Shown here piece by piece: positions 5,588 through 63,007 of a stretch of DNA of 64,000 nt. Positions within the stretch are counted from its first letter, which is position 1; every line of letters starts with the position of its first letter. Location of the stretch: assembly GCA_963920765.1 (NCBI GenBank), contig OY987244.1, forward strand, positions 8,558,501 through 8,622,500, given 5' to 3'. The notes beneath the pieces were generated by a model. It did no database searches. It saw only the letters and a list, made by a program, of their open reading frames with translations, and was not told where the DNA came from. A program made the translations under genes and the position numbers. This stretch comes from Ulota crispa. Taxonomy: Eukaryota; Streptophyta; Bryopsida; Orthotrichales; Orthotrichaceae.

Positions 5588-6508
5588 TTAACCCCTAAAG
5601 GACCATGGCCTTTATTTTGTCAAAAAAACACTCAAAATTGCCACCTCTATGGCAAAGAGTAAAAAAATTTGAAAATCAATTTTTTTGCACATCTATCGTA
5701 GGATCTTGTATTAGACTACTATAAAAATGTGTCTTACAAAATTCAAGAACTTTGACTACACAGATTGCAAGATATTTGTATTTAAAAAGTAAAAAACAAC
5801 TTTTTTTGCAGCTTGCATGAATAGATTATTTAATTTTGAACATTTTTAACTTAAAATTTTTGCACTACATAGTTTGGAATTCTATTTTTGCATGGTGGAA
5901 AGTTGAGTTGGTAATCTTGGAAAAATAATAATAACAAAAATTAATTAATTTTCATTCTTTAAAAAAAACATTAGGCAGAAGAAGGTATGAGATTGAACAA
6001 AGACTTAAATTGCTAATAACCATGCAATGGAATTGAAATGCAATAGTCTCAACAGTGAGGTTGTTCTAGAAAGCAAACCTCACCTTTTCCAACACTTTTT
6101 TTTTGAAAAATGTTAAGTTTGCATTCAAAAATGAAATTTATAAGTTATTTTTTCAAGAAGATGCTTGAATTGCCCAAAAAACAAGATTGTCCATAACTTT
6201 CTCATAACTAGTCCAAATGGAATGAATCAAAGCTTCAGATGTAGAAAAATATATAATTTATGAGAAAAAAAAATTCAAGTTTTTATAAGAATTTTTTTTG
6301 TTGCCCGGAGTCTTTATATTTGTGCTTATTTGGGCATAACTTTTGCTCTCTGGCATCAAATGGAATAAAAATTAGATGCCCATGTAAATCTTTGAATTCC
6401 CCATTTTTGATAAACGTTTCAAAAAAATATGCAAAGTAGTTTGGCCATAGGTACTTGCTCGAAATCCCATTTGTCTGTTGAACGGACAGTTGGTCCTTTA
6501 GGGGTTAA
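5588..6508. mobile_element. TTAA-flanked element, long family, copy 1
   Basis: TTAA at 5588-5591 and 6505-6508 flank inverted ends ACCCCTAAAGGACCA and TGGTCCTTTAGGGGT. Inside, GTAGGATCTTGTA lies about 110 bp from the left end and GGTACTTGC about 60 bp from the right end; these motifs recur at matching places in the other long copies. The 33610-34535 copy is the same element in reverse orientation. There is no open frame, so it is non-autonomous. TTAA plus CCC-starting ends is piggyBac-like; a TA target with extended preference is the alternative. Confidence 0.8.
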
Positions 6509-6711
6509 TAGGACAAATAATTACTTTATGCAGCCCATATGTGCTCAGTGCACTTTGGGATTAGGTTTGGAGTAGAAGTGTGGTGAATCAAAGTTTGGGC
6601 CACTTTGGGAAGAGTGACATGTAACTTACTCATGTCACTAGCTTCAAGGGAATTAGGGCAGTTTTCCATGCAAGCGAAATTAGCAAAGATCCAATAACTT
6701 ACCTTCACTAA

Positions 6712-7552
6712 TCTACGACATCTCCTATGCAACTGTAAAAGAGGCAAGCAAAAGCTTTGTGCAGTGTTTTCAAACCAGACTTAAGCAAAAACATGGGCTC
6801 CAATGCAACAAGTAAACCAGACTGCATTTTTCAGGGCTCCCCACATAAGAGCCCCTCCCCTGCAAATTTTCACTATTTAGAGAGTCTTGCATACCACTTA
6901 GCTTTGACACTAACGCAATTTCAAGGAATTTCAGATACTTCTAACATGAACTAGCCACACATAAGCACGTAAAAAAGACATTAATTATTAAAACATTGTG
7001 TTTAGTGAGTGTCATAATGTATGTGCATTGGAAGGTGGTAGATTGGGAAATGACCCTGCTTTGTAAGAGAGCCGGCGTCAAGCACGGCCTGACACACTTT
7101 CTGGAGCTCAAATCCAGGCTGGATTGGGGATTAGGGCATCCCAATACAACCAAAAAACAAGTTGGGCAAACTGTGTCAGCCAGTGGCTGACACCAGCTGT
7201 GGTGCAGAGCAGGGGCATTTTCAAGTTAAGCAGTCCTTGATGCACACAAGCTCTGACACTTGCTAAACATGAGTTTTTAATAATTTATGTCTTTTTTAAA
7301 TGCTTATGTGTGGCTGATCCATGTCAGAAGTATATGAAATCCCTTGAAATTGTGTCAGTGTCAAAGCTAGAGTGGTATGCAAGACTCTCCAAATAGTGAA
7401 AATTTGCAAGGGAGGGGCTCTTATGTGGGGAGCCTTGAGAAATGCAATATGATTTACCTGCTGCATTGGAACCCATGTTTTTGCTCAAATCTGGTTTAAA
7501 ACACTGCACAAAGCTTTTGCCTGCCTCTTTTACGGCTGCATTGGGGATGCCC
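6712..7552. mobile_element. Large foldback element with about 280-bp arms
   Basis: The left arm (about 6712-6993) and right arm (about 7272-7552) are inverted copies with scattered differences. They enclose a loop of about 280 bp. The right end, CATTGGGGATGCCC then TTA, matches GGGCATCYCC-type Tourist/Harbinger ends; the left end has diverged. Two 65-80 codon frames on opposite strands (6757-6954, 7324-7566) encode similar peptides only because the arms are complementary. RNA from it would form a long hairpin. Confidence 0.75.
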
Positions 7553-7555
7553 TTA

Positions 7556-8940
7556 GAGATTGGCAAATTTAGTTATATTGCCCAGAGAAAAGTTCCACCA
7601 ACCATAATGTCAGTAGGGAAAAACCAGTGAAGTAATAGGATTGTTTGTTGTAAGAAAATCTCAAAAGTGCTGATTTCTACAATGTATTGCCATCATTTAC
7701 TTGACAAAAAACAATTCACGGGCTCAGTTCTTGAGCAATATGACTGTTGACAACATTGTTTTGATGTTACATATTACATCCTGGCTCATGTGGAACCAAA
7801 CTGCAATTTTAGTACTAGTATTTGCATGCCACAAAACGATGGTGATTTTGCAAGTCAATGTTAAATTCAATCAAGTCTTTAATGGATAAACTCCTTATAA
7901 CAACACACGCTTTAAATAAAAATCATGCTTACCAAATTTGCTTTTTCTTCTTCGATCATTCTTTGATCAAATAGTAGCACTTCCATGCATTAGCAAAAAT
8001 AGTCAACTAGTCACTGTAGCTATTGTGATCTTTACCAAAGTTGGGCACACTTAGAAATCTCCTCTTGCGCAACATAAACAATAAACTACAGGAGGTGAAA
8101 AAGCAGCTTTGTTCATCCCAGGCAAAGAATTAATGCTTTATCAAATGTTGAAACTCACCACTTTGAATCTTTCTTGAAATCCTTTGATTTCCTTTGAAAA
8201 ACAAGTTCTCCGTTTTTTTATAGCTAGAATTTCACCACCTGTTCGTTGAAGTACTTGTGACTAACCTGGTGTTTGCCTACTGTATCATCAGGGATGCCTA
8301 TATTCCTATAACATGCTTCAGCTGCAAATATCCCTGCAGATTCACTGATATTTATCCTGCACACTACAAAAAGTTTTTTGTACTTTCTTGTGGGCACTGG
8401 CTGGTCATTCTCTGATAATTAAAATCACATGAATCCATTTAAAATCACCTGAATCCATTTCAAAAGGCTCCCCGCATGCTGCAGCTCTGCCTGCAAAATG
8501 CATTTGTTCTCAGAAATACTTCAAAGATTCTGTGCAGAAACACTATTTTTGGCCTTCGTCCCGCACGTACGTACTTCATGTAACTTAGCCATGCATTATG
8601 GGCTTCACCGCCTTCACGTAAGTTAATTGTACTTCTCAGTTGCCGTTAGGAATTGGATGCCTTGTAGACATGTGTCCCATGATTTCTATGTAGCATTGTA
8701 CGGGGGGGAGCTTCACCTGATAACTTAATATTTGGAATTTCCCACTCTGAACAGGATTTTCCCAAGCCTATACCTGATATTGCCTGTATTTAATGAATAT
8801 TTTTGAAATCTGGTCAGTGTTTTCTTGTAGTTTTATAGCTTTCTTTCGCATTTAAATCGGCTAAAAATGGACGAATTGCTAGTTCTCCCTTGCACATTGC
8901 TATGTACTCCAGAACAAATAAAGGTCAAATTCTTTTAAGT
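7556..8940. other. Intergenic DNA, no gene recognised
   Basis: I see no coding exon. A short tandem duplication (AAAATCAC.TGAATCCATTT) lies at about 8420-8460. Confidence 0.4.
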
Positions 8941-9174
8941 AAATTGTGAGTAGGGATCTTTGAGCTGTGAGCTTAGATTTTTTGTCAAAATATTAATTTT
9001 CAATTATGGATGCAAACACAAGATTTTATGGTTGTGCACTATAAAGATTTATCTCTTAAAAAACTAGCCATTTTTTAAATTTTTACATTGACTTTGAGCT
9101 CAAAATTGGTTCTCACCCATAAAATCTTGGTTCACGGCTCTCATGGGCTCATTATTTAATGCTCACTAAATAGC
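8941..9174. repeat. 'GTGAGC' inverted-repeat element, copy 1
   Basis: A block holding GTGAGCTTAGATTTTTTG near the left and its loose complement (CATAAAATCTTGGTTCAC) near the right recurs at 19781-20032 with the same order of motifs. Repeated GTGAG or CTCAC words lie at both ends. It is non-coding. hAT-like ends are possible, but no target duplication is clear. Confidence 0.55.
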
Positions 9175-9756
9175 GTTGTCCCATTTTGCACATACCAAAA
9201 TTTTTACGTAGTTGTTATCAAAGAAAGCCCACAACCATTTCATGCGGTAGTACCAAATGAAACTATTATTTCATTGTGATTAAAAATCTGCAACAGAGCT
9301 AGTTTTGTTTGACCTCTAAGGTACATTCACACCATGGATGATGAAAATGGGAGGTGTAAAACATAACTTTGGTGGTTTCATAGGAGTTTTTTTTTTTCAA
9401 GTGACTAAATCTACCCCAGTTGAGAGCTCATTTACACAAAAGGGGAAAGACAACCTTCAAGGGGTGAGCAAGGAAGTAGAAGAGCTCACTCTCTTGGTGG
9501 GATTTAGGGCAGCTTCACACTATGGCCAAAGGTCAAGAGGCCGTTGGTCTTCACCAATTAGATTGCACAAAATTGAGGGTCCGGTCGCTCACGCCTTCAC
9601 ACTAGAGGCCAAACTCCAAAGGCTATCATCCGTCATTTGCCTACATGGCAGCACTTTATCATCCAAAATTGACAGCCTTTGGGCAAGAGTTTGGGTCCAA
9701 CAAAATGCTAGGCCCAAATCTTGCCCAAAGACCGTCAAAAATTTTCAATTTTTTTG

Positions 9757-9765
9757 AATAAAAAA
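9757..9765. repeat. 9-bp target duplication, left
   Basis: AATAAAAAA directly precedes the MULE-like MITE and is repeated exactly at 10281-10289. Confidence 0.85.
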
Positions 9766-10280
9766 GGGAAAATATCAAAAATGCCCATCAGTTCTTTCAA
9801 AATATCAAATATACCCCTATATTATATGAAATATCAAAAATACCCCTGGTTTTGTGTCAAAATATCAATTATACCCTTAATTATCTTTGAAAACATCTAA
9901 TATCTTTAGTTTTTTTTTACTTCTTTAGTACAAATTTTTGTAAATATTGGGATGCCAATGAAAATTACAAATCTAGATGCAATTTGAATGTAAGTAAAAT
10001 CTTGGAAGCAAGCTTCTCAAGTTTTATATAGGGTTTTTTCATTTAAGTTTATTGTGGCCATGTATTGACTAATCTTTGTCACTGTCTTTGGTGCAAATGT
10101 GACTTACAAAAATTTTAGTAAAAAGGCACACAAAAATTAAGAATATTAGATGTTTTCAAAAATGACTAGGGGTGTAATTGATATTTTGACATAAAACCAA
10201 GGGTATTTTTTATATTTCAGATAATATAGGGGTATATTTGATATTTTGAAAGAATTGAGGGGCGTTTTTGATATTTTCCC
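9766..10280. mobile_element. MULE-like MITE nested in the Harbinger element
   Basis: This 515-bp element begins GGGAAAATATCAAAAATGCCC and ends with its complement. Inverted arms of about 140 bp are each built from four to five tandem units of about 30 bp of the form AAATATCAAAxATACCCCT. It is flanked by an exact 9-bp duplication, the size made by Mutator-like transposases. The deleted Harbinger relative at 37.4 kb has the matching sequence around 37670-37690 without the insert, giving an empty site. No coding frame belongs to it. Confidence 0.85.
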
Positions 10281-10289
10281 AATAAAAAA
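10281..10289. repeat. 9-bp target duplication, right
   Basis: Exact second copy of AATAAAAAA flanking the MULE-like MITE. Confidence 0.85.
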
Positions 10290-10478
10290 TCCAAAACTGA
10301 CAAGATCTTGGCCGTTAGATCAAAAACCCTTTTCTTGGAAGGGGGGAAAGGGCCATCTCCTCCTTCTTCTTCCCTCTCTTCTTCCCTCTCTTCATCTCTC
10401 TCTCTTTCAATTTTTGTTGTTTGATAGGGTTTGCTCCTTGTTTTGCAGCTATACTTGTTGTTTTCAAAAGTAGAGAAC

Positions 10479-11718: not shown

Positions 11719-11759
11719 AGTACTACCAACTACTCTTCATCCGAGCTACAATGCTCAAA

Positions 11760-13152: not shown

Positions 13153-13397
13153 GATTGGTGAAGGTGAGAGAAGGATTTTAGAGATTGTAAGGATACATGT
13201 AGGACTACACAAGGGTAGAGGTTTGACAAATGTTATGGGGTTGACTTTTGGAGGCTTCACACCAAGGTGGGCCAAGGCATTAACAAACAATTTTTTATTA
13301 ATTTTTTTCAGCCCATTTTGTTGGCCCCTCACCAAAATTTGGCCACTCAAATCCACGGCCTCTCGACTTGACCAGTCATGGTGTGAAGCCACCCTTA

Positions 13398-15805: not shown

Positions 15806-16054
15806 TTAATCCGTAAGCGCACAGTCTTTGAACCTAAAATGTCCAACATGCTTGCAATCAAAATGCTCTTGTGAATTGAAAAATACAATCCACAAGATCG
15901 GACCATATGAATTGTTAGTGGAAAGCGTCTCCATTGTGTTGGGCTCAATTGGAGGTAGTTTCATGGAAGGAGCAATGAGATTATATTGGTAAAAATTGTA
16001 TTAACCTAGCTTTTTGAGAGACATTATAATGTCTCTCGGGCGCTCAAGGGTTAA
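15806..16054. mobile_element. TTAA-flanked short element, 'GGGCGCTC' family, copy 1
   Basis: TTAA at 15806 and 16051 bound 249 bp ending CGGGCGCTCAAGGG. A GAGACATTATAATGTCTC palindrome lies near the right end. The 35699-35946 copy is the same element in reverse orientation and one base shorter. It is non-coding. Confidence 0.75.
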
Positions 16055-17626: not shown

Positions 17627-18595
17627 TTAACCCCCAAAGGACCAAGGGTGTTTTTTGAGAAAAAATCTCAGAAACTGCCGACTTGAAGTGCATTGTCCAA
17701 AATTGAAAATATAAACTTTTTTTCTCAACTCCAACCGTACAAAAGTGTGTCAAATATATGAATTAATGTGTGCAAAAAATTTCAGCCCATTTGATCGCAC
17801 GGATCGTAAGATTATAACGCTTGAAGTGAGAAAAAAAGCTTTTTTTCATTCCTGCAAAACAAGGTCAGTAGACTTTGAATCTTTGTAGAGTAAAAATTTT
17901 GGTCTACACAAATTTGAGCTTTTTGACCATTCACAAGTAAATGATGTTAGGTTCACTCATGAAAATTTTCAAATGCAAAGATAGAATCTAGATTATTCTA
18001 AATCACCATGCAATGCAAGGAGGTTTAGTGAATTGGCAATACATTAGTCATTCTTTCATGATTTCTTGTGCAATGAGGAAGTTTTTTATTTGAAATCTTG
18101 AAATGTGAAAAGTTAGAGACAATCATTTGGAATATGTGAAAAAAAATTTCAAGAGTTTTGAATTTCTAAATTGAAAGATAATAGAGCCTAAAGTTAGAGG
18201 ATTTTTTTTTTTTTTTCTTGAAACTACCCAAACATAGTTAACAAAGTTTGACTCCCTTATAAATGTGATGTGAGAGTTTGATTATAATTACTTTTTTGCC
18301 AATTGTACATTATACATTTTTAGTTACATACTTGCCAAATTTCAAAAGTTGATGAGAGTTTTAACATAAGATTCTCCAAAGATGCCCAAGCTGCCCAAGC
18401 TGCCCAAATTCTTTTGGGTAACATAACTTTTGAACTGGGCATCTGATTGAGGAAAAAATTTCACCTCCACTTACAAGATACATATTTGCACCTTGTGTAA
18501 CAATTTTGAGAACATCCAATAAAAATTAACTTCATATAACCCTACCCAAATTCTCAAATGGCTATTGAACAGCCACTTGATCCTTTAGGAGTTAA
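17627..18595. mobile_element. TTAA-flanked element, long family, copy 2
   Basis: TTAACCCCCAAAGGACCA opens the element and TGATCCTTTAGGAGTTAA closes it (969 bp). The interior shares phrases with the other long copies, such as GGATCGTAAGAT about 175 bp from the left end and GCCCAAGCTGCCCAA near the right. There is no coding frame. Confidence 0.75.
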
Positions 18596-21561: not shown

Positions 21562-22484
21562 TTAACCCCTAAAGGTCTTCGTTTTTTTTTTTTAAATAAC
21601 TAAAAACTACCACATTTAGGAGAATGAGTAGAAAGGTAGGAAAATAGTTGTTTTTGAAAATCCAATCATAGAATGTTGTCATAGATTACGGGAGGTATTT
21701 GTTGAAAAAAATTTAACTCATCTCAAATGGAGAGGAGTAAGATATTGACATCTGAAGGTAAAGATAAAAAGCTTTTTCTTTTCCTGTCTAATTTTTTAAT
21801 TTTTTGATTGTCCTTATAGTAAAATATTACTCTACACAAAGTTGAGATTTAATTGCTCCATGTAGAAGACTAGGTTAGGTATTTGTGGGAGAATTTTCAA
21901 ATGAATTGGAGGTGTAAAACATACTTCAAAAAATCTTTGAATGTTGAAAGGTCACTAAAATTTGCAAACACACTACGCAAAATTGAAGGATTATATAAAA
22001 TTCAAAAGTTTGGATTGCACATATCCTAAAGGTAAAAAACAAGGAATGTTAGCTCACTACAAATTGGCAAAAAAATAAACTAAAAAACAAATACACAAAT
22101 TGCTCACATATTTAAAATAATTTTTTTTACAAGGGGCAAAAGGAATGGAGGGTTGGAAGTTCTCTAACACAAGCTCCTTCCACTCCACTTCCCTTTGCGT
22201 AAGTGTCCACACTTTGTGCCCATCAAGGCTAACCCTCTTTGGAATCAACATCTATACATAAGAGAGGCCTTGCCCAAATTGCCCCTCCTCCCTTCTTTTG
22301 ATAAATTCTTGCATACCTTCTTTTCTAAATGTTGGAATGAAGAAAAAATGAGATGCCCACGTAGGTTTTTGAATTCCCATTTTCAATGAAAAGTTAAAAA
22401 AATTGTTCAAACTAGTACAACTATAGGTACATTCCCAAAATTCCTATTTGTAGCTCAAGAAGATAATGGTATTTTAGGGATTAA
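21562..22484. mobile_element. TTAA-flanked element, long family, copy 3
   Basis: TTAACCCCTAAAGG on the left and TTTTAGGGATTAA on the right bound 923 bp. GGTACATTCCCAAAATTCC near the right matches the subterminal motif of the other long copies. There is no credible open frame. Confidence 0.75.
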
Positions 22485-23756: not shown

Positions 23757-24510
23757 TTACCCTTAAGCGCCCTAGCGACCAGATTATGATTGGTCTAGAT
23801 TTCAAAGGCATGTTTGTGGTACTCGATCTAATTTTTTGATCTTGCTATAAACTACAACTATGAAGGCATTCAAGTTGTTTATGTCAATGGAGTAATGGCA
23901 AGGAAAGTCAAATGTTGTACAAGTGTTGCAAGAGATTTGATTGGGTGAAATGCCATACGGGGCGTGGTGGCAGGCAACATCTTACAAGCTACAACCGGTC
24001 AATATCCCATACAAGCTTCCTTGTGTAAGCTTTGCAGTAGCGGGGAAGTTATTGGCAAAGGGTTCAAGCATGTTCTAAACCCTTATTATGGCAACCTAAA
24101 CCGACTCTGCCGGTCATTGTTTTCTATGCAATAGCCATTTGAAACCCTAAAACTTGACATAAAAAGAAGCTCAATCTTCAAAAATTTACAAGTGTGTGCA
24201 TTCACAGCAAATCTTGCTACTCACAAAATTTGAGATGAATCCGGGAATTTTGTAAAAATCATCAAATAGTAACTACCTACCAAAAATTGAGGTTTTGTCA
24301 TCACGTGTTGTTTGATCAAATGTTATAATCTCCCATCTCTTGCGGTGAATTGTTCCCAAAATTTGTAAGCCATTTTCTAAGTAGGTATTCCATTATTTTC
24401 AGTGGTCACTTTTTGTGGATCATCCGATTGAATGAGATATGATGCATCAAAGTTGTCAATCTCCAAAATCCCTAATTTTGGTGAATACGGCATGGGCACT
24501 CAGTGGTTAA
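23757..24510. mobile_element. TTAA-type element, 'AAGCGCCC' family, copy 1
   Basis: The right end GGCACTCAGTGGTTAA carries TTAA, and the left end TTACCCTTAAGCGCCC is slightly altered. The 754-bp interior matches 46396-47179 in reverse order over most of its length (for example TTCAAGTTGTT and CTTACACAAGGAAGC read on opposite strands). Confidence 0.7.
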
Positions 24511-27070: not shown

Positions 27071-27094
27071 AGGTACGCAGTAAGCCTAAGTTAC

Positions 27095-28013
27095 TTAACT
27101 CTTAAAAGACTAAGCAAAGTTTTCACCAAAAACTTCAAAACTGCCATTTTTAGAGCATCAACCAAATTTGAAAACAAAAACATTTTTATGTATATGTGAT
27201 TGTAGGATCTTGTAGAAGTATGGTTTTAGAAAATGTGGAAAAAATTTCAAAGTTTTCCACTAAGTGGATTGGAAGTTAGAATGGTTTGAATATTCAAACA
27301 CGTTGTGTGAAAAACTAGGCAGCTACCTTTCTGAAGGTGAAATTCTTAAGGAAAAAAGGCCATGTGGGTGGTGCTTCTCTAAACTCCTTATTCCTCCTAA
27401 GTAAAGTACATGTCAAAAAAGTTTCAAATCATTTGGAGTTGCACAACATATGGAAAAAAATTAGTAAGCAAAAAGAAGTAGAGAATGATTCAAAACACTA
27501 AATTTTTTAGAATTTAATTATGGAAATGAAAAATGCCAATCCCAATGGTCATAATGTTGTCATAAACAATATTCATCTTTTGGTTTTGTTTTTTCCCAAG
27601 ATGTTGAAAATTGAGTAAAATAAAGGACTTCAAAGTTTATTTTGGAGTAGAGAATCCATAACTGCCCGCAAACTAAAAATCCTCATAACTTTCATTTAGT
27701 TGATCCAAATGGTATGATTCAAAACTTCCTACATTCACACAAATCTCCTAAACCAATTTAATCTTTTTGTTTTTGAAAAAAGTAACTTTTAAAAATCTGC
27801 CTAGGCTGCCCGTCGAACGTAAAAAATAACATATTAGGTCATAACTTTTTACTCATAATTCCAAATGTCATGAAATTTAATGCATATGAAAGATAAACCT
27901 TGTCCCCACATTCTGTTTAAAATTTCAGCCTAAAATATGAAAAGCTCCAATCACAGGTACCTACCCAAAATCACTGTGTTTCTAAAAACGGGGTCTGGTC
28001 CTTTAGGGGTTAA
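27095..28013. mobile_element. TTAA-flanked element, long family, copy 4
   Basis: TTAACTCTTAAAAGACTAAG opens and GGTCCTTTAGGGGTTAA closes 919 bp. GTAGGATCTTGTA lies about 110 bp from the left end and GGTACCTACCCAAAATC about 60 bp from the right, as in the other long copies. Confidence 0.8.
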
Positions 28014-33525: not shown

Positions 33526-34797
33526 TTAAGGTAGGAGCACCCATAAGCATCAGGTTAAAGGTTTTGACCATGATGAGTATTAATAAACAACTAGCAAATA
33601 TGATGAGTATTAACCCCTAAAGGACCATTTGTCCGTTCAACAGACAAATGGGATTTTGGGCAGGTACCTACTGCCTCAATTTTTGTCCTGATTTTTTAAA
33701 TTTTTTTTGAAGATAGAAAAACACATTAGCTTTTGGGGAATCTAATTTTTATTCCAATTGATGTCAGGGAGCAAAAGTTATGCCCAAATAAGCACAAATT
33801 TGGGGACTCCGGGCAAAAAAAAAATTCTTATAGAAACTTGAAGAAAAGTTGATTTTTTTTCTCATAGATTATATCTTTGTCTAAATCTGAAGCTTTAATT
33901 CATTCCATTTGGACTAGTTATGAGAAAGTTATGGACAATCTTGTTTTTTGGGCAATTCAAGCATCTTCTTGAAAAAAAGACTTATAAACTTCAGTTTTGA
34001 ATGCAAGTATAACATTTTTTTCAAAAAAATTGTTTGAGAGTTTAAAATTTGCTTTCTAGAATAATCTCACCATTGGGATTATTACGTTTCAATTCCAGTG
34101 CAGGGTTATTAGCAATTTAAGTATTTGTTCAATCTCATACCTTCTTCTACCTAATGTTTTTTTTAAAGAATGAAAGTTTTTTTTTTTTGTTATTTTTTTC
34201 CCCAAGATTACCTACTCAACTTCCCACCATGCATAAATAGAATTCCAAACTTTGTGGTGCAAAAATTTTAAGTTAAAAAAAGTTCAAAGTCAAATAATCT
34301 TGTTAGGCAAGGTGCAAAAGAAGCTGTTTTTTACTTTTTAAACGCAAATATCTTGGAATCTGTGCGATCAAAGTTCTAGAGTTTTCTATGACACACTCCT
34401 ATACTAGTCTAGTACAAGATTCTAAGATCAAATATGCAAAAAGATTAGTTTTCAATATTTTTTACTCTTCTCCATAGAAGTGGCAGTTTTGAGTGTCTTT
34501 TGACAAAATAAAGGCCATGGTCTTTTAGGGGTTAATGAACAACTAGCAAATTATAGAATCCTATTAGGAACAAAAAAAATAATGAGTTTGCACTTTTGAA
34601 TGTATTATTTGGATACTATGAAAATAATTGTGACTTTTTAAAGAGCAAACTGCCATTGCACCCATAACCAATACTAAGGTTTCATGTTCACATGTTGTAC
34701 ATCCTTGTAATCACATCTGTTTACTTCTACAAATTTTCTAGGATTTTAAAGGTGATGGTTATGGGGACACTAACGCTTATGGGTGTTTCTACCTTAA
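33526..34797. mobile_element. MITE, 'GGTAGGAGCACCCATA' family, copy 2, interrupted
   Basis: TTAAGGTAGGAGCACCCATA opens directly at the end of the Tourist-like MITE, and ATGGGTGTTTCTACCTTAA closes it. It is split by the TTAA element at 33610-34535. A stretch of about 30 bp (ATGATGAGTATTAA...GCAAAT) is duplicated beside the insertion. Without the insert it matches the 26.8-kb copy in reverse orientation. Confidence 0.8.
33610..34535. mobile_element. TTAA-flanked element, long family, copy 5 (nested)
   Basis: TTAACCCCTAAAGGACCA opens and ATGGTCTTTTAGGGGTTAA closes 926 bp inserted in the 33.5-kb MITE. It is the reverse complement of the 5.6-kb copy, with GGGCAGGTACCTAC near its left end. Comparison with the unoccupied 26.8-kb MITE puts the target within TATTAATAAA, consistent with TTAA. 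Confidence 0.85.
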
Positions 34798-35702
34798 TCC
34801 TTAAAGGACCAAGTACATTTTTTCTTAGAAAACACTCAAAATTGTCATTTCTAGTGAATTGATCCCCAAAACAATCTTTTTCAAAAAATATCACGTCTAA
34901 ACTTAGGATCTTGTACTAGACTCATTTAAGAACATACCATGAAATTTTGTGAAGTTTGACCGTAACGGATCGAGAGATATGATCATGTAAAGGTAGTACA
35001 TAAAGTTTTTCTACCTTTGCCCAAAATTTTGAGTGCCTTTGACCACATGTGATGAACAATTTTTGTACTATAGGTGTTGAAGAGATTTGTCCAACATGCT
35101 CTAAATCATGTTAGGCATATCTCTCCAAGTTTTTGTGATCAACCAAGAGATGGAATACACCCTCCATGCAATCCACGGCCCTGCATTGCAAACATGTGCT
35201 TGAAATTCACATTACATTGAGGTTTTTTGCCAACCAAGTTTTCTAAAAAGATATTAAAGAATATAAAAATCTAAGCGATGGATTAGAAGAGTTTAGCTTC
35301 ATTGACAATCTCAAGAAAGAAAATTGGAAAAAAAAACTAAATCTCTAATAGCTATTGCAATTCAAAGGTTAATGTATTTATAAATACAATAATGTATTTA
35401 TTTAGTACACTATTGCTTTGGATAGATTCCATAGAGGGGCATCCCTTCAATGGTTCCCCTTGGGAGAAGTCAACAGAAAATGGCATGCCCAAGCTGCCCC
35501 TTTAACTAAAATTCACATGTTTACCCTTATAACTTTTGAACCGGAAATTGGAATTTAGTATAGGTTGTTCTCCCATGTAACTTTTGCAAAATTCTACCTT
35601 TGGAGAAAAAATTATAGAATTTGGTCATAAATTTTAGTAACATGACCTTGCCCCAAATTCCCATTTGTCCTTCGTAGGGACAAGTGGTCCTTTAGGGGTT
35701 AA
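34794..35702. mobile_element. TTAA-flanked element, long family, copy 6
   Basis: TTAATCCTTAAAGGACCAAG opens and GTGGTCCTTTAGGGGTTAA closes 909 bp. TAGGATCTTGTACTAGA lies about 115 bp inside. The left TTAA is also the end of the 33.5-kb MITE and the right TTAA is shared with the next element. Confidence 0.85.
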
Positions 35703-35946
35703 CCCATGAGCACCCAAGAGACATTATAATGTCTTTGAAAAAGCTGGGTCAACTCCATTTGACCAATATAATCTCATTGCACATTTAGTGAAACCACTTC
35801 CAATCTAGTTCATCATGATGGAGACGCTTTCCACTAACAATACATATGGTCCAATCTTGTGGATTGTATTTTTCAATCCACAAGGGCACTTTGATTGCAC
35901 ACAAGTCAAGCATTTTTCATTTCAACTCTGGGCGCTCAGGGGTTAA
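35699..35946. mobile_element. TTAA-flanked short element, 'GGGCGCTC' family, copy 2
   Basis: 248 bp from TTAACCCATGAGCACCC to GGGCGCTCAGGGGTTAA. It is the reverse complement of the 15.8-kb copy. It shares its left TTAA with the element before and its right TTAA with the one after. Confidence 0.85.
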
Positions 35947-36572
35947 CCCCTCATTGCCCATTGTAGTTTGGAGTATCTTAGAATTTGCTTGAAAGTGAAC
36001 AAAATGCAAGCATTTTGATCAATCTTATTAAATTTCTTTGAAGCGCAACCATACAAATTCAGAGTAGACATGTTATAGATCACATAGGAAAAGAAATCAC
36101 AACAATATCATTTATGGATTGAAAGATTATAATGTTTGATCATGAAGGTGTTAAAACTGCGAAAGTGATTTGAAGCCTTTCAATCCTCTTTTTGCATCTC
36201 AAACCTAAAATTGAGGGTACCAAAAAAATATGAGTATGTAAAGTATAACATGTTTAACTCCAATCAATTTACGGCTTCTCAAAAATCTATTTTACAATTT
36301 TTTAAATTGAAATTTTAATGTGATTTTTTCTCCAAGTTCTACTGTACTTGAAGCTCATTTCCAAGAATCTTCAACACTAGAAAGTGAAGATTTGCAACAG
36401 ACACTCTTGCACAAAATTTTGAACAGCCAAATCACTTTAATTCATTTTCAGAATCAAACTCTTGATGCTAAAACTAGACTTCAAAATAATAATAATCACT
36501 AAAAAGAATCAGAAAGGTTGTGCATCAATTCAAAGAAGACCGATTTGAGCCCCTTCGGCGGGTAGGGGTTAA
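35943..36572. mobile_element. TTAA-flanked element, 'CTCACTGCCCA' family, copy 1
   Basis: TTAACCCCTCATTGCCCA opens and GGCGGGTAGGGGTTAA closes 630 bp. The 57955-58597 copy has the same interior in the same orientation (GTAGACATGTTATAGATCAC, TTTACGGCTTCTCAAAA). It is non-coding. Confidence 0.85.
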
Positions 36573-37226: not shown

Positions 37227-37430
37227 TTAACCCTTAAATGATCATAGGGCATAGTATATATGCCGTCATATATATTTGCTACCAATAAGAAGTTTTAATT
37301 TGGAATTTCAAGTAGCTCTCTAAAATCACTTTAATCTATTCTCCAACTTCTTTTTTGATCTCAAATGTAATAAAGGTGTGAATCTACTCCAAATACAAGA
37401 AAAACACCTTGTACAGTGGTGCCTGGCTAA
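37227..37430. mobile_element. TTAA element, 'CATAGTATATATGC' family, left part
   Basis: TTAACCCTTAAATGATCATAG begins a sequence matching the left about 200 bp of the 57456-57689 and 38174-38423 copies (GCATAGTATATATGCC, TTGCTACCAATAAG). It is cut by the Harbinger derivative at 37431. The expected right end with TTTAGGGGTTAA is not found after it, so this copy has lost its right end. Confidence 0.65.
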
Positions 37431-38173: not shown

Positions 38174-38423
38174 TTGACCCTTAGTTAAAGGATTGAGCTA
38201 CCATAATACATAGTATGTTTGTTGCTATATAACTGGCATTTGCTACCAACAAAAAGTTTTAGTTTGAGATCTTAACTACCTCACTTGAACAACATTGATC
38301 TATATTCTAATTTCTTTGTTGATCTCAAATGTAATAAAGGTGTGGATGCACTCCAAATACAAGAAAAATACCCCATATTGCAGTGGTCGCAAAGGGCTGC
38401 TTAGTTGGTCCTTTAGGGGTTAA
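38174..38423. mobile_element. TTAA element, 'CATAGTATATATGC' family, copy 2
   Basis: The right end TTGGTCCTTTAGGGGTTAA is intact and the left end (TTGACCCTTAGTTAAAGG) has diverged. The 250-bp interior matches the other copies (TTGATCTCAAATGTAATAAAGG, written here with more than one variable base, and CTCCAAATACAAGAAAAA). Confidence 0.65.
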
Positions 38424-43409: not shown

Positions 43410-43481
43410 GCGCACCCATAAGCGTGGAAATAAGTGTTTTGGAGTAGGTGAAATAATTGGCTAACTTTGAAAAAAATACTA

Positions 43482-46395: not shown

Positions 46396-47179
46396 ATAAC
46401 CCCTAAGCGCCCAAGCTAATTTCACCAAAATCAGGGTTTTGGGATACCTCCAACTTTGATGTTTTGTATCTCAGTCAATTGATGATCCACAAAAAGTGAC
46501 CATTGAAAACAGTGGAACACCTACTTAGAAAATGGCTTACAAATTTTGGGAATAGTTCGCCGTAGGAGATGGGAGATTATAACATATGATCAAACAACAT
46601 GTGATGACAAAATCTCATTTTTTGGTAGGTAGTTGCTAACTTATAATTTTTACAATATTCCATAAGCCCTCGGATTCATCTCAAATTTTGTGTGTAGCAA
46701 AATTAGATGTGAATGCACACACTTGTAAATTATTGAAGATTGCACTTCTTTTTAAGTTAAGTTTTAGGGCTTCAAATCACTATTGCACCAAAAACAATGA
46801 CCAGCACAATTGGTGAGAATTGCCATTATAAGGGTTTAGTATATGCTTGAACCCTTGCCAATAACTTTCCCGTTACCACAAAGCTTACACAAGGAAGCTT
46901 GCAAGGGATTTTGATTGGTTGCAGCTTGTAAAATGCTCCTTGCCACCATGCCCCATATGCTTGCCACCACTCTCCATATGGTGTTTCACTTAATCAAATC
47001 TCTTGCAACACTTGTACAACATTTGACTTTCCTTGCCATTACTCCATTGGCATGAACAACTTGAATGCCTTCATAATTGTAGTTTATAGCAAGATCAAAA
47101 AGTTAAATCCAATCCCTCAAAACAAGGCTTTGAAATCGTGGGAGGCAATATATGAGACGCTGGAGCACTTAGAGATTAA
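46396..47179. mobile_element. TTAA-type element, 'AAGCGCCC' family, copy 2
   Basis: The left end is CATAACCCCTAAGCGCCCAA and the right end CACTTAGAGATTAA; 784 bp. It is the reverse complement of the 23.8-kb copy over most of its length. The 100-codon frame at 47052-47354 overlaps its right end and is not a gene. Confidence 0.7.
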
Positions 47180-47921: not shown

Positions 47922-49133
47922 TTGGCCCTTAAAGGATCAAACACTAATTTTTTTGGCAACATAGTAATTTTGGGCAATCTATTATTTGTAGAATAACAAA
48001 AAAAAAGCCCACAAAAACTTTAGAGGATGTGCACCCAAGGAGCATCTTTCAATGTAATGATTTTCAAACTATTTTCAATTTGCAAAAAAAAAATGTTATG
48101 ATAAAGTATGTAATTTTGCTTGCTTGTAGGATAGGATAGGCACAACTATTAACATTGTGATTTTGGGATTTTGCCCAAAAGTTGAGGGGCTGAAAGTTAT
48201 TTCATTGTTAGTCCTTGACCCAACCTCATTTTGTTAAGGCAATTAATTTTGCTTACTACCCTTTACTTCACATTAGGTGGATGTGGCCTGTGTTGATCAA
48301 ACTTGTCAAAGTTACAAATTTTTGATGATTTGATTTTTTTTCCCTTCTTCTAAAGCTAGCTAAAATTTGAAGTCCCACCTTGCACATTTTGAAAGATTAT
48401 TGTATGTGAAAACCAAAAATTGTTGAAAAATGGCTTTATATGAGAATTTTCCTAAAGCAAGTTTCCTATCCAATTTTTTTAGTACACGTTCCTTAATCCA
48501 AATTTTATTGAAAGTTATTAAGCATATGGCTAGCTTTATTCCAAAAATCAATTAAAAAGAGTCCAAACATATAAGTGCTATCAAGTTGTGCAAAAGCCTC
48601 CCCAAACGAGAGCTTCCTTAAACACTACCTCACACCATATTCGTTATGATGAGAGAATGGGGACCTCTCAAAATAAACATGTTGATCTTGACCAAAATCA
48701 CCAATTTTCATTAAAATGAGAATTTTCAATTCAACTTAAGCTAAACTAACCTAAAATCTTTCAATTTTAAGTTTAATCTAAAAGATTTTATGCCAATTTA
48801 GCTCAATCCAAGTTGAATTGACCTAAAACCTTTTGTCAAATTGACCTAAAACTTTTTAATTTCAAGTTGTATTTCCTTTAAATTGCCTCTCATTTCACTA
48901 AAAAACTCACATTATAACAAATATGGTGTGTTTTCTCACTTCCAACCCTATATCTTATAATTTGAGTGACCATAATCTCTCATCTTTTTATATAGCATAA
49001 TGAAGTAGTTTACTACTAAATACTATAATAAATTGCACCAAGATTTCATTTGTCATTTATTTTTATTTTTGATCAAAACAAGTCATTCTAAATTTTTTTT
49101 GGTGAGACATAGTCAAAGAACTTTAGGGGTTAA
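47922..49133. mobile_element. TTAA-type element, diverged long family, interrupted
   Basis: The right end ACTTTAGGGGTTAA is good. The left end TTGGCCCTTAAAGGATCA is a mutated match. The 1212-bp length is explained in part by the nested MITE at 48632-48930. Confidence 0.5.
48632..48930. mobile_element. MITE, 'CGCCATATT' family, copy 3 (nested)
   Basis: ACACCATATTCGTTATGATG and the complement CATTATAACAAATATGGTGT bound 299 bp inside the 47.9-kb element. The interior is rich in CCTAAAA and TTCAATTT repeats. Confidence 0.65.
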
Positions 49134-51503: not shown

Positions 51504-51735
51504 TCAACCCTTGAAGGGCCCTTGGGCTCTGGAGCTACGGTACCAAATATGGTCACAACCAATATTCAGAAGTTTGAATCAGCCGGAAATTAAGTGTTAC
51601 AACCATACATATTGAAGGGTTGTATGATGGTGGGTACATAATTTTTTTTGGAAAACCCTCAAAGCAACTCAAATATGTTTGTACATACGGCCATATATAC
51701 GACCCCAAAGGGCTTTCATGATGTTCAAGGGTTAA
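51504..51735. mobile_element. TTAA-type short element, 'GGGCCCTT' family, left of pair
   Basis: It starts TTCAACCCTTGAAGGGCCC (first site altered to TCAA) and ends GTTCAAGGGTTAA. Its 232-bp interior is the reverse complement of the neighbour (ATTGAAGGGTTGTATGATGG, TTTGTACATACG). Confidence 0.75.
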
Positions 51736-51973
51736 CGCTTAAACGTCACAAAAGCCCTTTGTGGCCCTTTGCGCCCATATGTATGGACGTATGTACAAAC
51801 ATATTTAAGCTGCTTTGAGGGCTTTCCAAATTTTTTTATGCACCTACCATCATACAACCCTTCAATATGTATGATTGTAAAACTTGATTTCTAGCTGATT
51901 CAAACTTTTGAATACTAGTTGCGACCGTATTTGGTACCATAACTCCAAAGCCCAAGGGCCCTTTAGAGGTTAA
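51732..51973. mobile_element. TTAA-flanked short element, 'GGGCCCTT' family, right of pair
   Basis: It starts TTAACGCTTAAACGTC and ends AGGGCCCTTTAGAGGTTAA, 242 bp. It shares the central TTAA with the left copy, so the two form a palindrome of about 470 bp. Confidence 0.78.
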
Positions 51974-52171: not shown

Positions 52172-53108
52172 TTAACCCCTAAAGGACTATTGTCCCTTCA
52201 GAGACAGGTGGGAGTTTGGGCATGTACCTTTGGATAAGCTACTTTGTGTGATTTTCTAAAACATTTATTAAAGGTGGGGAATTCAAAGATCTACGCGGGC
52301 ATCTAATTTTTTCCTCATTCCAACAATTATTGAAGAACTTATGCATGAAAATTTGAAAAACAAGGGAGGACTGCCCGCTCAAGCAACCCAAAAACTTCTT
52401 TAAAAATATATATATATTTTGAATTAAAATTTGAAATTGGTTCTTTAGATTTTTTTATAGGTGACAAGATTTGAATCATTCAATTTCAATCAATGACATG
52501 AAAGTTATGAGGAGTTTTTGATTGCAGGCAGTTCTAGAATCTCTACTCTAAAATAAACTTTGAAGTCCTTTATTTTACTCAATTTTTATTACTTTGGAAA
52601 AAAAACAAAACCAAAGGATGTAGATTGTTTATCACAACATTATGACCGTTGGGATTTGCAATTTTCATTTTAATAATTAAATTCTTAACAATTTAGTGAT
52701 TTGACTCATTCTCTACTTCTTTTTACTTAGTGATTTTTCCTATGTGTTGTGTAATTCCCAATGATTTGAAAATTCTCCCACACATGACTAACTTGATCTC
52801 CTACATGGGAAAAATAAAGCGCAAAGTTGCGTAGAGAAATTATTTTCATGTAAGAATGGTCATAAGCTTCTAAAATTTTGTGGCAACATGAAAAAAAACT
52901 TTTCTTTTCACTTTAGTTGTAAATATCTTACTCATGTCCATCTAGAATGACCTGATTTTTTCTCCACAAGTACCTAATCCAAGCTAGAGCAAGATCCTAT
53001 AGTTGAATTTCCCAAATTTTCAAAAAAATTACCTTCTTACTAACCCCCCAAAAGTGGCAGTTTTGAGTGATTTTCACTGAAAAAATGGCTCAGTTATTTA
53101 GGGGTTAA
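52172..53108. mobile_element. TTAA-flanked element, long family, copy 7
   Basis: TTAACCCCTAAAGGACTA opens and GGCTCAGTTATTTAGGGGTTAA closes 937 bp. The orientation is reversed: TTTGGGCATGTACC lies near the left and CAAGATCCTATAG about 120 bp from the right. There is no coding frame. Confidence 0.8.
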
Positions 53109-55254: not shown

Positions 55255-56391
55255 TTAACCTCTAAATGTCCACGGGTGTTTTTCTTGTTTGTGGAAAGAA
55301 GTTTTGAAATTTCTGAATTTATGTTGTAGGATCATTATTAACCATCAAAACAAAATTGTAATTGTTATAATTTTTGCTAATTATGAAAAAAGGATACATT
55401 TTGGGACTTTTGAATTTTTCCTTTTTGAGAATAATTGGGTGATTTAAAGTGAATTTTACAATGATTTTTCCAAGATCTTACATCATTGTTGTCAGATCTT
55501 GAAGGAATTATCATAAAAAGGCACATCAAATCACCAAAATACTCTCACATACGCAAAATTCAGAAGTCCCAACATGTATTCCTTTTCCAATTTAACTAAT
55601 ATGGCATTAACATTAGGATCTTGAACATGAAGGCTACTAGATGGTGCTCCCAAAAAATCTCCAAAAAGGCCACACATTTTTAAGATATTTGTGATTATGT
55701 GTAGATGAGTATGGAATTTTTTGGTTTTTTTGGTTGCATAAATCTTTTAATATAAAAGTGGCAACTTTTTTGTATAGAAATGGGAAACAACTACTTATGA
55801 CTGCATAATATATTTTATTGTTACTATAAAACTAATGACCTCCTTTCCAAATCTATTATCTCAATTTCACAAATAAATGTGCAAGACAATTGTCAAAAAG
55901 CTACTACCTAATAATATAAAGGAAACTTTTAACTCCAATTTTTGACCAAACATCATTATAAATGAGAGAAAATCCCACAGTGAATGAACTCTAACTTGTA
56001 TAATTAAAGACATTCCAAGTGAAATTAGCTCAAAAACACATTTGAATTTTATTAAATGATGAATTTTCAATGGAAGGACCCTCACTGCCCATTGGAGTGC
56101 CCTAAGGAAATCTTCATTTTATTCTCAACTTGATACTTGTCATTCCAGTGTGGCAGCTTGTCATAGGCTTTTTAGTGACACTATTCATCACACTTCTTGG
56201 TGTGCAAGAGGTATCAACTTGTGGTTTAGCTTCCACAAAAAAGAATGGAATATAGTATGGAGGAAGTTAAATTTGAACGCTAAAGCTAACTTCAGCATAC
56301 AATTTCTCAAAAAAAAAAAAACCTTAAAACAATCAATCTTTGCCTTCATCTTGAAAACCAAAATTTGATGCCTTGGATATTGAGGGATTAA
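55255..56391. mobile_element. TTAA-flanked element, 'CTAAATGTCCA' family, copy 1
   Basis: TTAACCTCTAAATGTCCA opens and CCTTGGATATTGAGGGATTAA is the proposed right end (1137 bp). The first 140 bp match the right end of the 62127-63007 copy in reverse (GTAGGATCATTATTAA, CAAAACAAAATTGTAA). A half CGCCATATT end lies at about 55570-55605. The right boundary is less sure. Confidence 0.6.
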
Positions 56392-57455: not shown

Positions 57456-57689
57456 TTAACCCTTAAATGTCCATAGGGCATAGTATATATGCTAACGTAT
57501 AATTGTCATTTGCTAACAATAAGAAATTTTAATTGGGATCTCAAATAGCTCACTAGAACCGTATTGATCTATTCTCCAACTTCTTTGTTGGTCTCAAATG
57601 TGGTAGAGTTGTGGATCCATTCCAAATACAAGAAAAAAAAACCCGTATTGGACTAGTCGGAGCGGCAAGCTCACGCATTTAGGGGTTAA
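57456..57689. mobile_element. TTAA-flanked short element, 'CATAGTATATATGC' family, copy 3
   Basis: TTAACCCTTAAATGTCCATA opens and CACGCATTTAGGGGTTAA closes 234 bp. It is the most intact of the three copies and gives the reference for the broken one at 37.2 kb. Confidence 0.85.
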
Positions 57690-57954: not shown

Positions 57955-58597
57955 TTAACCCCTCACTGCCCACGGTACATTTGAGTATCTCAAAATTTGT
58001 TTGAAAGTGAACAAAATGTCGGCATTTTGATCAATCTTATCAATTTTCTTTGAAGCGTAACCATACAAATTCAAAGTAGACATGTTATAGATCACATAAG
58101 AAAAGAAATCACAATAATATCACTTGTGGATTGAAAGATCATAATGTTTAATCATGAGGGTGTTAAAAGTGCAAAGTGATTTGAAGTCTTTCAATCCTCT
58201 TTTTTCATCTCAAACCTAAAGTTGAGGGTACCAAAAAATATGAGTATGCAAAGTATAACCCAATCAATTTACGGCTTCTCAAAATCTATTCTACAATATT
58301 TTTTAAATGAATTTTTAATGTGATTTTTTCTCCAAGTTCTAGTGTACTAAGAGGCTCATTTCCAAGAGCCTTCAACACTAGAAAGTAAAGATTTGCAATG
58401 GATACCCTTGCACAAAATCTTGAATAGACAAATCATGTTAATTCATTTTCAAAATCAAACTCTTGATGCTGAAACTAGACTTCAATAAGAATTTAAAAAT
58501 AATAATAATCACTAGAAAAATCTTGAAAAAAGGTCGCGCTACTCTGAATAAAATTCAAAGAGGCCCGATTTGGGCCCCTTGGGCGGTGAGGGGTTAA
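57955..58597. mobile_element. TTAA-flanked element, 'CTCACTGCCCA' family, copy 2
   Basis: TTAACCCCTCACTGCCCA opens and TTGGGCGGTGAGGGGTTAA closes 643 bp. The ends are near-perfect inverted repeats. The interior aligns end to end with 35943-36572. Confidence 0.88.
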
Positions 58598-61656: not shown

Positions 61657-61851
61657 ATGGGCTCTGAGAGCAGCAATGGCAAGGAGAGCTCACCAGTGGG
61701 AATCACACCCGAGGAGCTGCACAAGGAGCGCAAGCACTTTCGATCCCCTCTCAAATGGTTCCGAGCCTCCAGCGATGGCCACGCTTCCAGGCCTAAGCCG
61801 CCCGTGGTGGTGAACTACTTCCCTTGTGGCCACCGTTTGAGTCTGTCCTGA
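61657..61851 (+). CDS. Candidate first exon of an unknown gene
   Basis: ATG at 61657 (or 61636 in the same frame) opens MGSESSNGKESSPVGITPEE, followed by LHKERKHFRSPLKWFRASSD and a Pro-rich stretch. The DNA is GC-richer, and a pyrimidine-rich, CTG-containing leader precedes it from about 61140. The frame closes at 61851. A GTGAAC near 61810 could be a splice donor, but no matching downstream exon is evident before the TTAA element at 62127. No domain is recognised. It could be a real gene start, or a fragment. Confidence 0.35.
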   Translation: MGSESSNGKESSPVGITPEELHKERKHFRSPLKWFRASSDGHASRPKPPVVVNYFPCGHRLSLS

Positions 61852-61933
61852 GTGACCATTCAGCAGCAGCACCACTTTCACTGGCATCTGCAAAAACACG
61901 TTGGCTCCCCTTTGGATCAAATGAGAGGCATTG

Positions 61934-61973
61934 CATCAACAACACTGGAGTGACATCAACAACACTGGAGTGC
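61934..61973. repeat. Tandem duplication, 20-bp unit
   Basis: CATCAACAACACTGGAGTG plus one variable base occurs twice without a gap. Confidence 0.9.
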
Positions 61974-62126
61974 AAGAGTTCTTACGCAATTGGCCATCGC
62001 ATTGTTTTCCCATGTACAGTCAGTGTGCTTGGTGCATTGTACAAGCAAGATAAGTGTCACTTGTTGGACTCTAATATTTGATTAGGCTCAAAGCTTGACA
62101 GTTGTGAAACATTTTGCCTCCAGTCA

Positions 62127-63007
62127 TTAACCCCTAAATGCCCAAGGCACCAAAACCTGGTGTCCAAAAAATTTCAAAAAACTTTGAAACCTTGTTGAAG
62201 GCATAGATGTTTTTTTTGTAGTTTTTTTTTTTGGAAAATTTGCATGCTGAAGTTACCTTCACCGTTCAAATTCAACTTCCTCCATATCTTATTCCATTTG
62301 TTTTTGGTGGAAGGTTAACTACAAGCATACATTTTCTATCATGAATAGTGTTGTGAATAGTGTCACAGAGCCTATGAGAAGTTGCCACATTGAAAAGACG
62401 GGCATCAAGTCGAGCAAAAGGTGAAGATTTCTCTTGGGCACTCCCTTGGGCAATAAGGGCCTTTTTTATGAAATTTTGACATCTAACAAAATCTAAAAGT
62501 GCTTTTGGACTAATTTCACTTGGAATGTCTTTGTTATACTAATTAGAATCTATTCACCATTGAAAATTCTTTCATTTGAAGCTGAAATTTTTCTTTGTAT
62601 TAGAAGGTTGTGTTTTTACAATTGCATTGCAGGCTCATTTGTGAAATTGTGGTCATGGATTTGGAAGAGGGGCCATTGGTTTTGAAGTAACAACAATAAA
62701 CACTAAAACATCCTAAGTGGTTGTTTCCCAATTTTGAATCCAAAAGTCACCAATTTACATTAGAAGTTTTGGGCAGCTCCAAAAAAAGCAAAAAATTTCA
62801 TACTCATCATTCAATCACAAATATCTTGAAATCTGTGCGGCCATTTTGGATTCTTTTTGGGTAGTGCTATCTAGAAACCTTGAAGTTCAAGATTCAACAG
62901 TTACAATTTTGTTTTGATGTTTAATAATGATCTTACAAGAACAATTCAAAAACTTCAAAACTACCACCTAAAAACAAGAAAAACACCCTTGGGCATTTAG
63001 GGGTTAA
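62127..63007. mobile_element. TTAA-flanked element, 'CTAAATGCCCA' family, copy 2
   Basis: TTAACCCCTAAATGCCCAAG opens and CTTGGGCATTTAGGGGTTAA closes 881 bp with near-perfect inverted ends. AATGATCTTACAAG about 80 bp from the right matches the subterminal motif of the 55.3-kb copy. It is non-coding. Confidence 0.88.

What the first reader, a model, noticed from the sequence alone, without database searches (positions are those of the whole stretch)
5588..63007. A diverse TTAA-flanked MITE superfamily fills the window
About 17 segments are bounded on both sides by TTAA directly joined to inverted ends of the form CCCCTNANNGNCCA; about six more have one mutated or lost end. They fall in at least six families by length and interior (about 234, 242, 248, 640, 770 and 900-1200 bp). 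The long ones share GTAGGATCTTGTA about 110 bp from one end and GGTACxTxCCCAAAATCCC about 60 bp from the other. TTAA targets with CCC-starting ends are typical of piggyBac, a superfamily I know as rare or unreported in land plants. No transposase is present here, so the assignment is inference.
Basis: partly seen in the sequence, partly recalled or inferred. Interest (0 to 1): 0.82.

Follow-up and report, generated by a model that had tools for sequence, protein, structure and literature searches.

The report
PiggyBac-like mini-transposons, probably in plant
A stretch of what is most likely land-plant DNA is about one-fifth filled with short, gene-less jumping elements whose tips, TTAA target and one-sided internal palindrome resemble the piggyBac family, which is well documented in animals but hardly reported from land plants.

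Summary
The end motif joined to TTAA occurs 30 times against 0.32 expected; with TTAA left out of the query, 13 of 14 exact cores still have TTAA directly before them. I delimit 14 two-ended and six damaged elements in seven families, 13.1 kb or 20.5% of the window. One insertion splits a repeat whose two other copies each hold a single TTAA there.

The piggyBac reading is strengthened. Over six families, one end carries a palindrome about 25 bp from the transposon tip (0 of 311 other positions score as high). It is clear in three families, moderate in a fourth, weak in two. piggyBac's left end has its transposase-binding palindrome at bp 17-33, centred near bp 25 (PMC7351741).

CAG/CTG stands at 0.56 of expectation, 0.41 inside the elements, which points to a land-plant host.

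Against: no piggyBac transposase was found and no genome is held, so membership is inferred; the opposite end has no copy of the palindrome. The resident PIF/Harbinger transposon has different ends and a TTA duplication, so it is not the evident partner.

The parts
5588..6508 (+). E1, ~920-bp family, A end left, B end right
   Evidence: TTAA and inverted ends at both sides; 83.6% to E7
6467..6493 (-). B-end palindrome of E1, partly decayed (dyad score 6 at bp 25.0)
15806..16054 (-). E2, 248-bp family, B end at 16054
16016..16037 (-). B-end palindrome of E2 (dyad score 10 at bp 24.5)
17627..18595 (+). E3, ~920-bp family
18554..18580 (-). B-end palindrome of E3 (dyad score 8 at bp 25.0)
21562..22484 (+). 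E4, ~920-bp family; no palindrome at bp 25
23757..24510 (-). E5, ~750-bp family; left TTAA damaged; weak palindrome at 23777-23795
27095..28013 (+). E6, ~920-bp family; no palindrome at bp 25
33610..34535 (-). E7, ~920-bp family, inserted into a copy of repeat R
   Evidence: one TTAA in each of the two other R copies
33625..33651 (+). B-end palindrome of E7 (dyad score 10 at bp 25.0)
34794..35702 (+). E8, ~920-bp family
35661..35687 (-). B-end palindrome of E8 (dyad score 8 at bp 25.0)
35699..35946 (+). E9, 248-bp family; shares TTAA 35699-35702 with E8 and 35943-35946 with E10
35716..35737 (+). B-end palindrome of E9 (dyad score 7 at bp 24.5)
35943..36572 (+). E10, 640-bp family; palindrome decayed
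   Evidence: 84.6% to E15
37227..37424 (+). E11a, 234-bp family, right part lost at the Harbinger MITE
38185..38423 (+). E11b, 234-bp family, left tip degenerate
46396..47137 (-). E5b, ~750-bp family, one end ATAA, other end lost
48932..49133 (-). lone A-type end (marginal)
   Evidence: nhmmer E 0.034, aligned
51504..51973 (.). 470-bp fully palindromic element, TCAA at one end, TTAA at the other
52172..53108 (-). E12, ~920-bp family; no clear palindrome at bp 25
55255..56391 (-). E13, 880-bp family with an extra inverted duplication 55295-55681
57456..57689 (+). E14, 234-bp family; palindrome 57478-57492 (dyad score 5 at bp 26)
57955..58597 (+). E15, 640-bp family
58558..58580 (-). B-end palindrome of E15 (dyad score 7 at bp 25.0)
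62127..63007 (+). E16, 880-bp family; its right end is homologous to the A end of the ~920-bp family
   Evidence: nhmmer E 3.1e-6

Best explanation
These are old, non-autonomous cut-and-paste DNA transposons (MITEs and longer gene-less relatives) of a piggyBac-type system, most likely in a land-plant genome. A transposase encoded elsewhere recognised the shared 14-bp inverted tips (CCCCTNANNGNCCA) and, on one end, a palindrome centred about 25 bp in; it cut the elements out and put them into TTAA, so that TTAA stands on both sides. Shown here: tips, TTAA target, an empty site with one TTAA, the position of the palindrome, and no recognisable coding capacity. Inferred: the identity of the transposase, that it binds the palindrome as the piggyBac cysteine-rich domain dimer does, and the plant host.
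For: Tips fused to TTAA far above chance. Empty site. Seven family tips score like 14 distinct published piggyBac-type coral tips on positions 4-14 (random-tail p 0.0011-0.0126; the two control tips 0.84 and 0.14). Dyad symmetry peaks at bp 24.5-26 over six families: 0 of 311 other positions as high, also with any one family left out; it is the top dyad within bp 15-65 in 7 of 16 B ends, from three families. In piggyBac the palindromic internal repeat spans left-end bp 17-33, with the bound minor groove centred near bp 25 (PMC7351741, passages and section 9). piggyBac-type definition of TTAA duplication plus CC[C/T]T tips: PMC2872659.
Against: No piggyBac transposase or remnant among the ORFs scanned; no genome to look in. 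Most tips read CCCCT, not the common CCCTT, although one coral piggyBac-type family reads CCCCT. The opposite end has no copy of the palindrome (13 elements, best p 0.073), whereas piggyBac has one in both ends. The palindrome is weak in the 750 and 880 families and absent or decayed in 3 of 7 long copies. A first, cruder palindrome test was negative. The published tips come from one coral study. TTAA, TTA and TA duplications inside TTAA leave the same sequence.
Confidence: 0.68

Rival explanations
1. They belong to another TTAA-targeting superfamily, such as Sola3 or an undescribed plant one, whose tips happen to start with CCC.
For: Sola3 exists as a MITE superfamily in insects (PMC5199201); that it uses TTAA is recalled. 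No transposase ties the elements to piggyBac. The A end lacks the second palindrome.
Against: The tips and the one-ended palindrome fit piggyBac. Sola3 tips could not be checked: the defining paper is not held.
Confidence: 0.18
2. They are PIF/Harbinger or Tc1/mariner MITEs with a strong preference for TTAA, duplicating only TTA or TA.
For: A PIF/Harbinger transposon is present, one of its MITEs is nested in E11a, and these superfamilies are standard in plants (PMC2528002). The empty site alone cannot exclude it.
Against: The two ends are symmetric about TTAA and the outer T is kept in 13 of 14 exact cores. The Harbinger tip matches no more than 3 of 14 positions of any published piggyBac-type tip and is unlike the elements' tips.
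Confidence: 0.08
3. They are Kolobok elements, the other well-described TTAA superfamily.
For: TTAA duplication is shared (PMC9587614).
Against: Kolobok termini are 5'-RR and YY-3', and its known green-lineage hosts in that paper are algae; here 26 of 30 ends start with C and 4 with T.
Confidence: 0.03
4. The elements are piggyBac-type but the host is an animal or another organism in which they are ordinary.
For: Nothing names the host; no own genome is held. CAG and CCG cytosines do not stand out in the pairwise comparison (17.0% and 11.0% against 14.3% at CHH).
Against: CAG/CTG is at 0.56 of expectation, 0.41 inside and 0.59 outside the elements, and C/T differences reach 37.7% at CTG: the mark expected from decay of CHG methylation, which chromomethylases maintain; these are described from land plants and some green algae (PMC5410703). 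That animals lack such depletion is recalled.
Confidence: 0.07

Closest known systems
piggyBac of Trichoplusia ni, left and right ends as described in PMC7351741 (passages and section 9)
   Same: TTAA target; short CCC-starting tips; asymmetric ends; a palindrome in one end at about bp 17-33, centred near bp 25.
   Different: No transposase gene here; tips mostly CCCCT; palindrome sequence differs between families; no second palindrome copy in the other end.
piggyBac-type MITEs of Acropora corals (CMITE, PMC2872659, passages)
   Same: Gene-less, TTAA-flanked, 14-bp tips; CMITE III tip CCCCTCAGTGTCCG matches the 640 family at 11 of 14 and five of the other six at up to 10 of 14.
   Different: Coral elements are about 100 bp; these are 234-1137 bp and the host is probably a plant.
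Tourist and Stowaway MITEs of plants (PIF/Harbinger and Tc1/mariner)
   Same: Abundant gene-less inverted-repeat elements of plant DNA.
   Different: TAA/TTA or TA duplications (PMC10004981) rather than TTAA; different tips (recalled; the resident Harbinger's tip tested).
Kolobok (PMC9587614, passages)
   Same: TTAA duplication.
   Different: 5'-RR termini, not met here.

Membership tests
piggyBac superfamily | TTAA target, TTAA on both sides | tested here: met
   13 of 14 exact cores preceded by TTAA; empty site with one TTAA. Four-base stagger itself cannot be told from sequence.
piggyBac superfamily | 12-19 bp inverted tips with CC[C/T]T (PMC2872659) | tested here: met
   14-bp tips, CCCCT or CCCTT in most ends; scores. 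Read strictly, CCCCT holds the motif one base in.
piggyBac superfamily | Palindromic internal repeat just inside one tip, centred near bp 25 (PMC7351741) | tested here: met
   Over six families jointly; clear in three, moderate in one, weak in two.
piggyBac superfamily | Second copy of the internal repeat further inside the other end | tested here: not met
   13 elements, best p 0.073. Described for piggyBac itself; not shown to define the superfamily.
piggyBac superfamily | Transposase of 500 aa or more with the piggyBac domain, in the element or a partner | not testable with these tools
   No genome held; no such domain in 269 ORFs of 55 aa or more and 81 of 144 shorter ORFs in elements.
piggyBac superfamily | Footprint-free excision | not testable with these tools
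   Needs orthologous loci or an assay.
Kolobok | 5'-RR and YY-3' termini | tested here: not met
   26 of 30 ends start with C, 4 with T (definition).
PIF/Harbinger | TTA/TAA duplication, Harbinger-type tips and partner | tested here: inconclusive
   Tips unlike those of the resident Harbinger; a TTA duplication inside TTAA is not excluded by sequence.
Tc1/mariner | TA duplication with variable outer bases | tested here: not met
   Outer T kept in 13 of 14 and outer A in 14 of 14 exact cores.
Sola3 | Its terminal sequence and transposase | not tested
   Defining paper not held.

The most novel reading that the evidence does not exclude
Land plants host, or until recently hosted, an overlooked piggyBac-class transposon lineage. 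Its autonomous copies are rare or extinct, but its gene-less derivatives diversified into at least seven families and keep a one-ended, family-specific transposase-binding palindrome at bp 25 from the tip, so the asymmetric end recognition known from piggyBac would be much older and wider than its animal examples.
Probability: 0.45. Interest if true: 0.78.

Novelty: new variant of a known kind. Interest (0 to 1): 0.6.

Why it matters
A December 2025 paper describes piggyBac as widespread in animals, fungi and protists with only occasional plant cases such as red algae (PMC12732532, passages); a 2008 grapevine survey lists five cut-and-paste superfamilies described in plants, without it (PMC2528002, passages). 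If a land plant carries a fifth of a 64-kb window as piggyBac-type elements, plant transposon catalogues are missing or misfiling a superfamily, and a plant-adapted, TTAA-specific transposase may be waiting to be found. The one-ended palindrome would also be a way to class TTAA MITEs when no transposase is left.

Tried and rejected
Harbinger as partner: the first lead was DNA shared between 37227-38423 and the transposase-bearing 9507-13394. It proved to be a separate Harbinger MITE nested in E11a; rejected.

One 1.2-kb element at 37227-38423: rejected; two copies of the ~234-bp family.

Relatives elsewhere: viral-contig scans for the 18-bp end, for a short paired-end element and for the Harbinger transposase (6 pattern matches, none confirmed), and one genome-contig scan, gave nothing. 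These collections are viral and prokaryotic, so this says little.

Coding remnants: Pfam on 10 ORFs, on 269 ORFs of 55 aa or more and on the 81 longest (39 aa or more) of 144 ORFs of 33-54 aa inside elements. Low-complexity ORFs were dropped beforehand. I took as meaningful DDE_Tnp_4 (E 3.9e-6), Myb_DNA-bind_4 (E 2.4e-4, below its curated cut-off) and, weakly, HMA (E 0.0015). The other matches (SidD_C 0.0034, NADH-G_4Fe-4S_3 0.0029, DUF4010 0.0082, SopA 0.015, ASFV_p49 0.011 and the rest at 0.015-0.047) I took as chance.

RNA families and tRNAs: none at gathering threshold or by ARAGORN.

Palindrome tests: the first version was negative (503 of 1000 null sets as high), with its maximum at another centre (66.5). 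A local helix score compared with other positions of the same elements gave the reported result. The register was noticed, before PMC7351741 was read; I already recalled then that piggyBac has such a repeat. The 470-bp palindromic element, the lone end 49133 and the degenerate left end of E11b were left out. The 'best copy' centres were sought only within bp 23.5-26.5; the free search is. The 311 positions overlap and are not independent. In the 750 family one A-end copy scores higher than the B end (5 against 4). The eight folded palindromes (z -2.45 to -7.60) were hand-picked and illustrate only. Stem covariation is mixed: 14 of 500 shuffles have as many two-sided pairs, but a +3 slide scores higher.

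Full report
What is there. TTAACCCCTNANNGNCCA occurs 30 times at up to two mismatches against 0.32 expected. Because that pattern contains TTAA, I repeated the search with the 14-base core alone: 14 exact hits, 13 preceded by TTAA and one by ATAA; 18 of 22 at one mismatch; 29 of 67 at two, where chance hits enter. Over 30 ends (34 listed, four that share a TTAA left out) conservation begins at the first T of TTAA and runs 14 bases inward; of the 15 flanking positions -1 is clearly biased and -7 mildly.

Delimitation. End listing and self-comparison give 14 elements with TTAA at both ends and six damaged ones, in seven families: ~920 bp (seven copies), 248, 640, 234, 880-1137, ~750 and a fully palindromic 470 bp. 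With the boundaries of this report they cover 13,123 bp, 20.5%. The seven long elements share polarity: the A end has CAAAACTGCCA near +41 to +46 and GTAGGATCTTGTA near +110 (6 of 7), the B end GGGATTTTGGGNAGGTACC near +41 (5 of 7 with up to 3 mismatches). Their pairwise identity is 43-84%. Copy pairs of other families are 80-85% identical, E13/E16 72%, so the insertions are old. The right end of E16 is homologous to the long-family A end (nhmmer E 3.1e-6).

Insertion evidence. E7 sits in a repeat (R) with two other copies in the window; each has one TTAA where E7's copy has TTAA-element-TTAA. E7's copy also holds an extra 30-bp tandem unit beside the element, which I cannot explain. E8, E9 and E10 stand end to end and share single TTAAs, as successive insertions into a flanking TTAA would leave. 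The empty site alone does not tell a TTAA duplication from TA or TTA within TTAA; the symmetry of the ends and the constancy of the outer bases favour TTAA. The base outside TTAA is C or A in 25 of 30 ends against 46% at background TTAA sites (Fisher p 5.1e-5).

The one-ended palindrome. Folding the bases behind each of 37 tips showed hairpins on one end at a common register. I scored local dyad symmetry at every centre from +17 to +180 in six families (the fully palindromic one left out), taking the better end per family and the mean over copies. At 24.5-26 bp from the first transposon base the score is 5.36 against 2.92 (sd 0.36) elsewhere; 0 of 311 other positions reach it, nor does any with one family left out. 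Family by family, 0, 4, 20 and 4 of 311 positions are as good in long920, 248, 640 and 234, but 46 and 38 in 880 and 750. In a free search within bp 15-65 the top dyad lies at bp 24.5-25.0 in 7 of 16 B ends (E7, E3, E8, E1, E2, E9, E15), at bp 27 in one (E5), at bp 26 as a tied-top or lower dyad in E14 and E11a, and elsewhere in the others. The palindromes differ in sequence between families. A cruder first test was negative, and stem covariation in the long family is mixed. In piggyBac a palindromic 19-bp internal repeat lies at left-end bp 17-33, a CRD dimer binds it on one end in the structure, and the minor groove narrows near bp 25 (PMC7351741, passages and section 9). Unlike piggyBac, the other end here shows no copy of it (13 elements).

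Tip sequence. A position matrix from 14 distinct published piggyBac-type coral tips (PMC2872659, passages) was scored on positions 4-14 of seven family consensus tips: p 0.0011-0.0126 against random tails and 0.0003-0.0126 against shuffled ones; control tips from the resident Harbinger and from repeat R gave 0.84 and 0.14 (0.94 and 0.043 against shuffled tails). The families are related, so these values are not independent, and the yardstick is one study. Kolobok, the other TTAA superfamily whose definition I could read, has 5'-RR termini (PMC9587614, passages); not met.

No partner seen. No own genome is held. The recognisable transposon genes of the window, DDE_Tnp_4 at 12367-13404 (-) and a Myb/SANT-like domain at 11221-11715 (+), lie in a PIF/Harbinger transposon, 9507-13394, flanked by TTA. 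ORF scans gave no piggyBac domain.

Host. Nothing names it. CAG plus CTG stands at 0.56 of a first-order expectation (888 against 1593.9), 0.41 inside and 0.59 outside the elements; CpG 0.30 and 0.43. In 17 repeat pairs (two overlap in part) C/T differences occur at 30.2% of CG, 37.7% of CTG, 17.0% of CAG, 11.0% of CCG and 14.3% of CHH cytosines. Chromomethylases, which maintain CHG methylation, are described from land plants and some algae (PMC5410703, passages). I infer a land plant; CAG and CCG not standing out weakens the pairwise part.

Literature. Ten searches of the held library listed no paper that I could recognise as describing TTAA piggyBac-type MITEs in a land plant. I opened 15 papers, as passages only apart from one section of PMC7351741; most listed papers were not opened. 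Three review-type papers name plants or angiosperms as piggyBac hosts without details that I saw (PMC2874221; PMC10004981; PMC10813416). MITE Digger mentions piggyBac only in its method (PMC3680318); the Mikania and common-bean papers do not bear on it. Repeat databases and most subscription journals are not covered, so an earlier listing is possible.

Verdict. The piggyBac reading is likely, but inferred. The probable plant host is what makes it interesting.

Noticed in passing
window 9507-13394: A PIF/Harbinger transposon with DDE_Tnp_4 ORF (12367-13404, -) and Myb/SANT-like ORF (11221-11715, +), TTA on both sides, ends GGGCRGCTTCACAC, holding a ~515-bp imperfect palindrome (9766-10280).
   Followed up: partly
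window about 37430-37986: A non-autonomous relative of that Harbinger transposon, nested in a TTAA element.
   Followed up: partly
window 26752-27081, 33524-34796, 43481-43996: Repeat R (~330 bp, ends GGTAGGAGCACCCAT): one copy intact, one split by E7, one split by a ~183-bp palindromic insertion at 43668-43850.
   Followed up: partly
window 33580-33613: An extra 30-bp tandem unit of the target region directly beside E7, unexplained.
   Followed up: no
window 6719-7549: A large imperfect palindrome (831 bp, 79.6% self-complementary) with CATCTCC-type ends; smaller ones at 2787-3019 and 54897-55187.
   Followed up: no
window 39989-40156: ORF fragment with a CxxC motif that probably gives the weak HMA-domain match (E 0.0015); looks like a plant HMA gene piece, by recall.
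   Followed up: no
whole window: CAG/CTG trinucleotides at 0.56 of expectation, deeper inside the TTAA elements (0.41), a likely trace of CHG methylation.
   Followed up: yes
window 32818-33287: Two 78-bp direct repeats 392 bp apart starting TTAGGGCATCTCCA, probably another MITE family.
   Followed up: no
TTAA element ends throughout the window: The base just outside TTAA is C or A in 25 of 30 ends against 46% at background TTAA sites, an extended target preference.
   Followed up: partly
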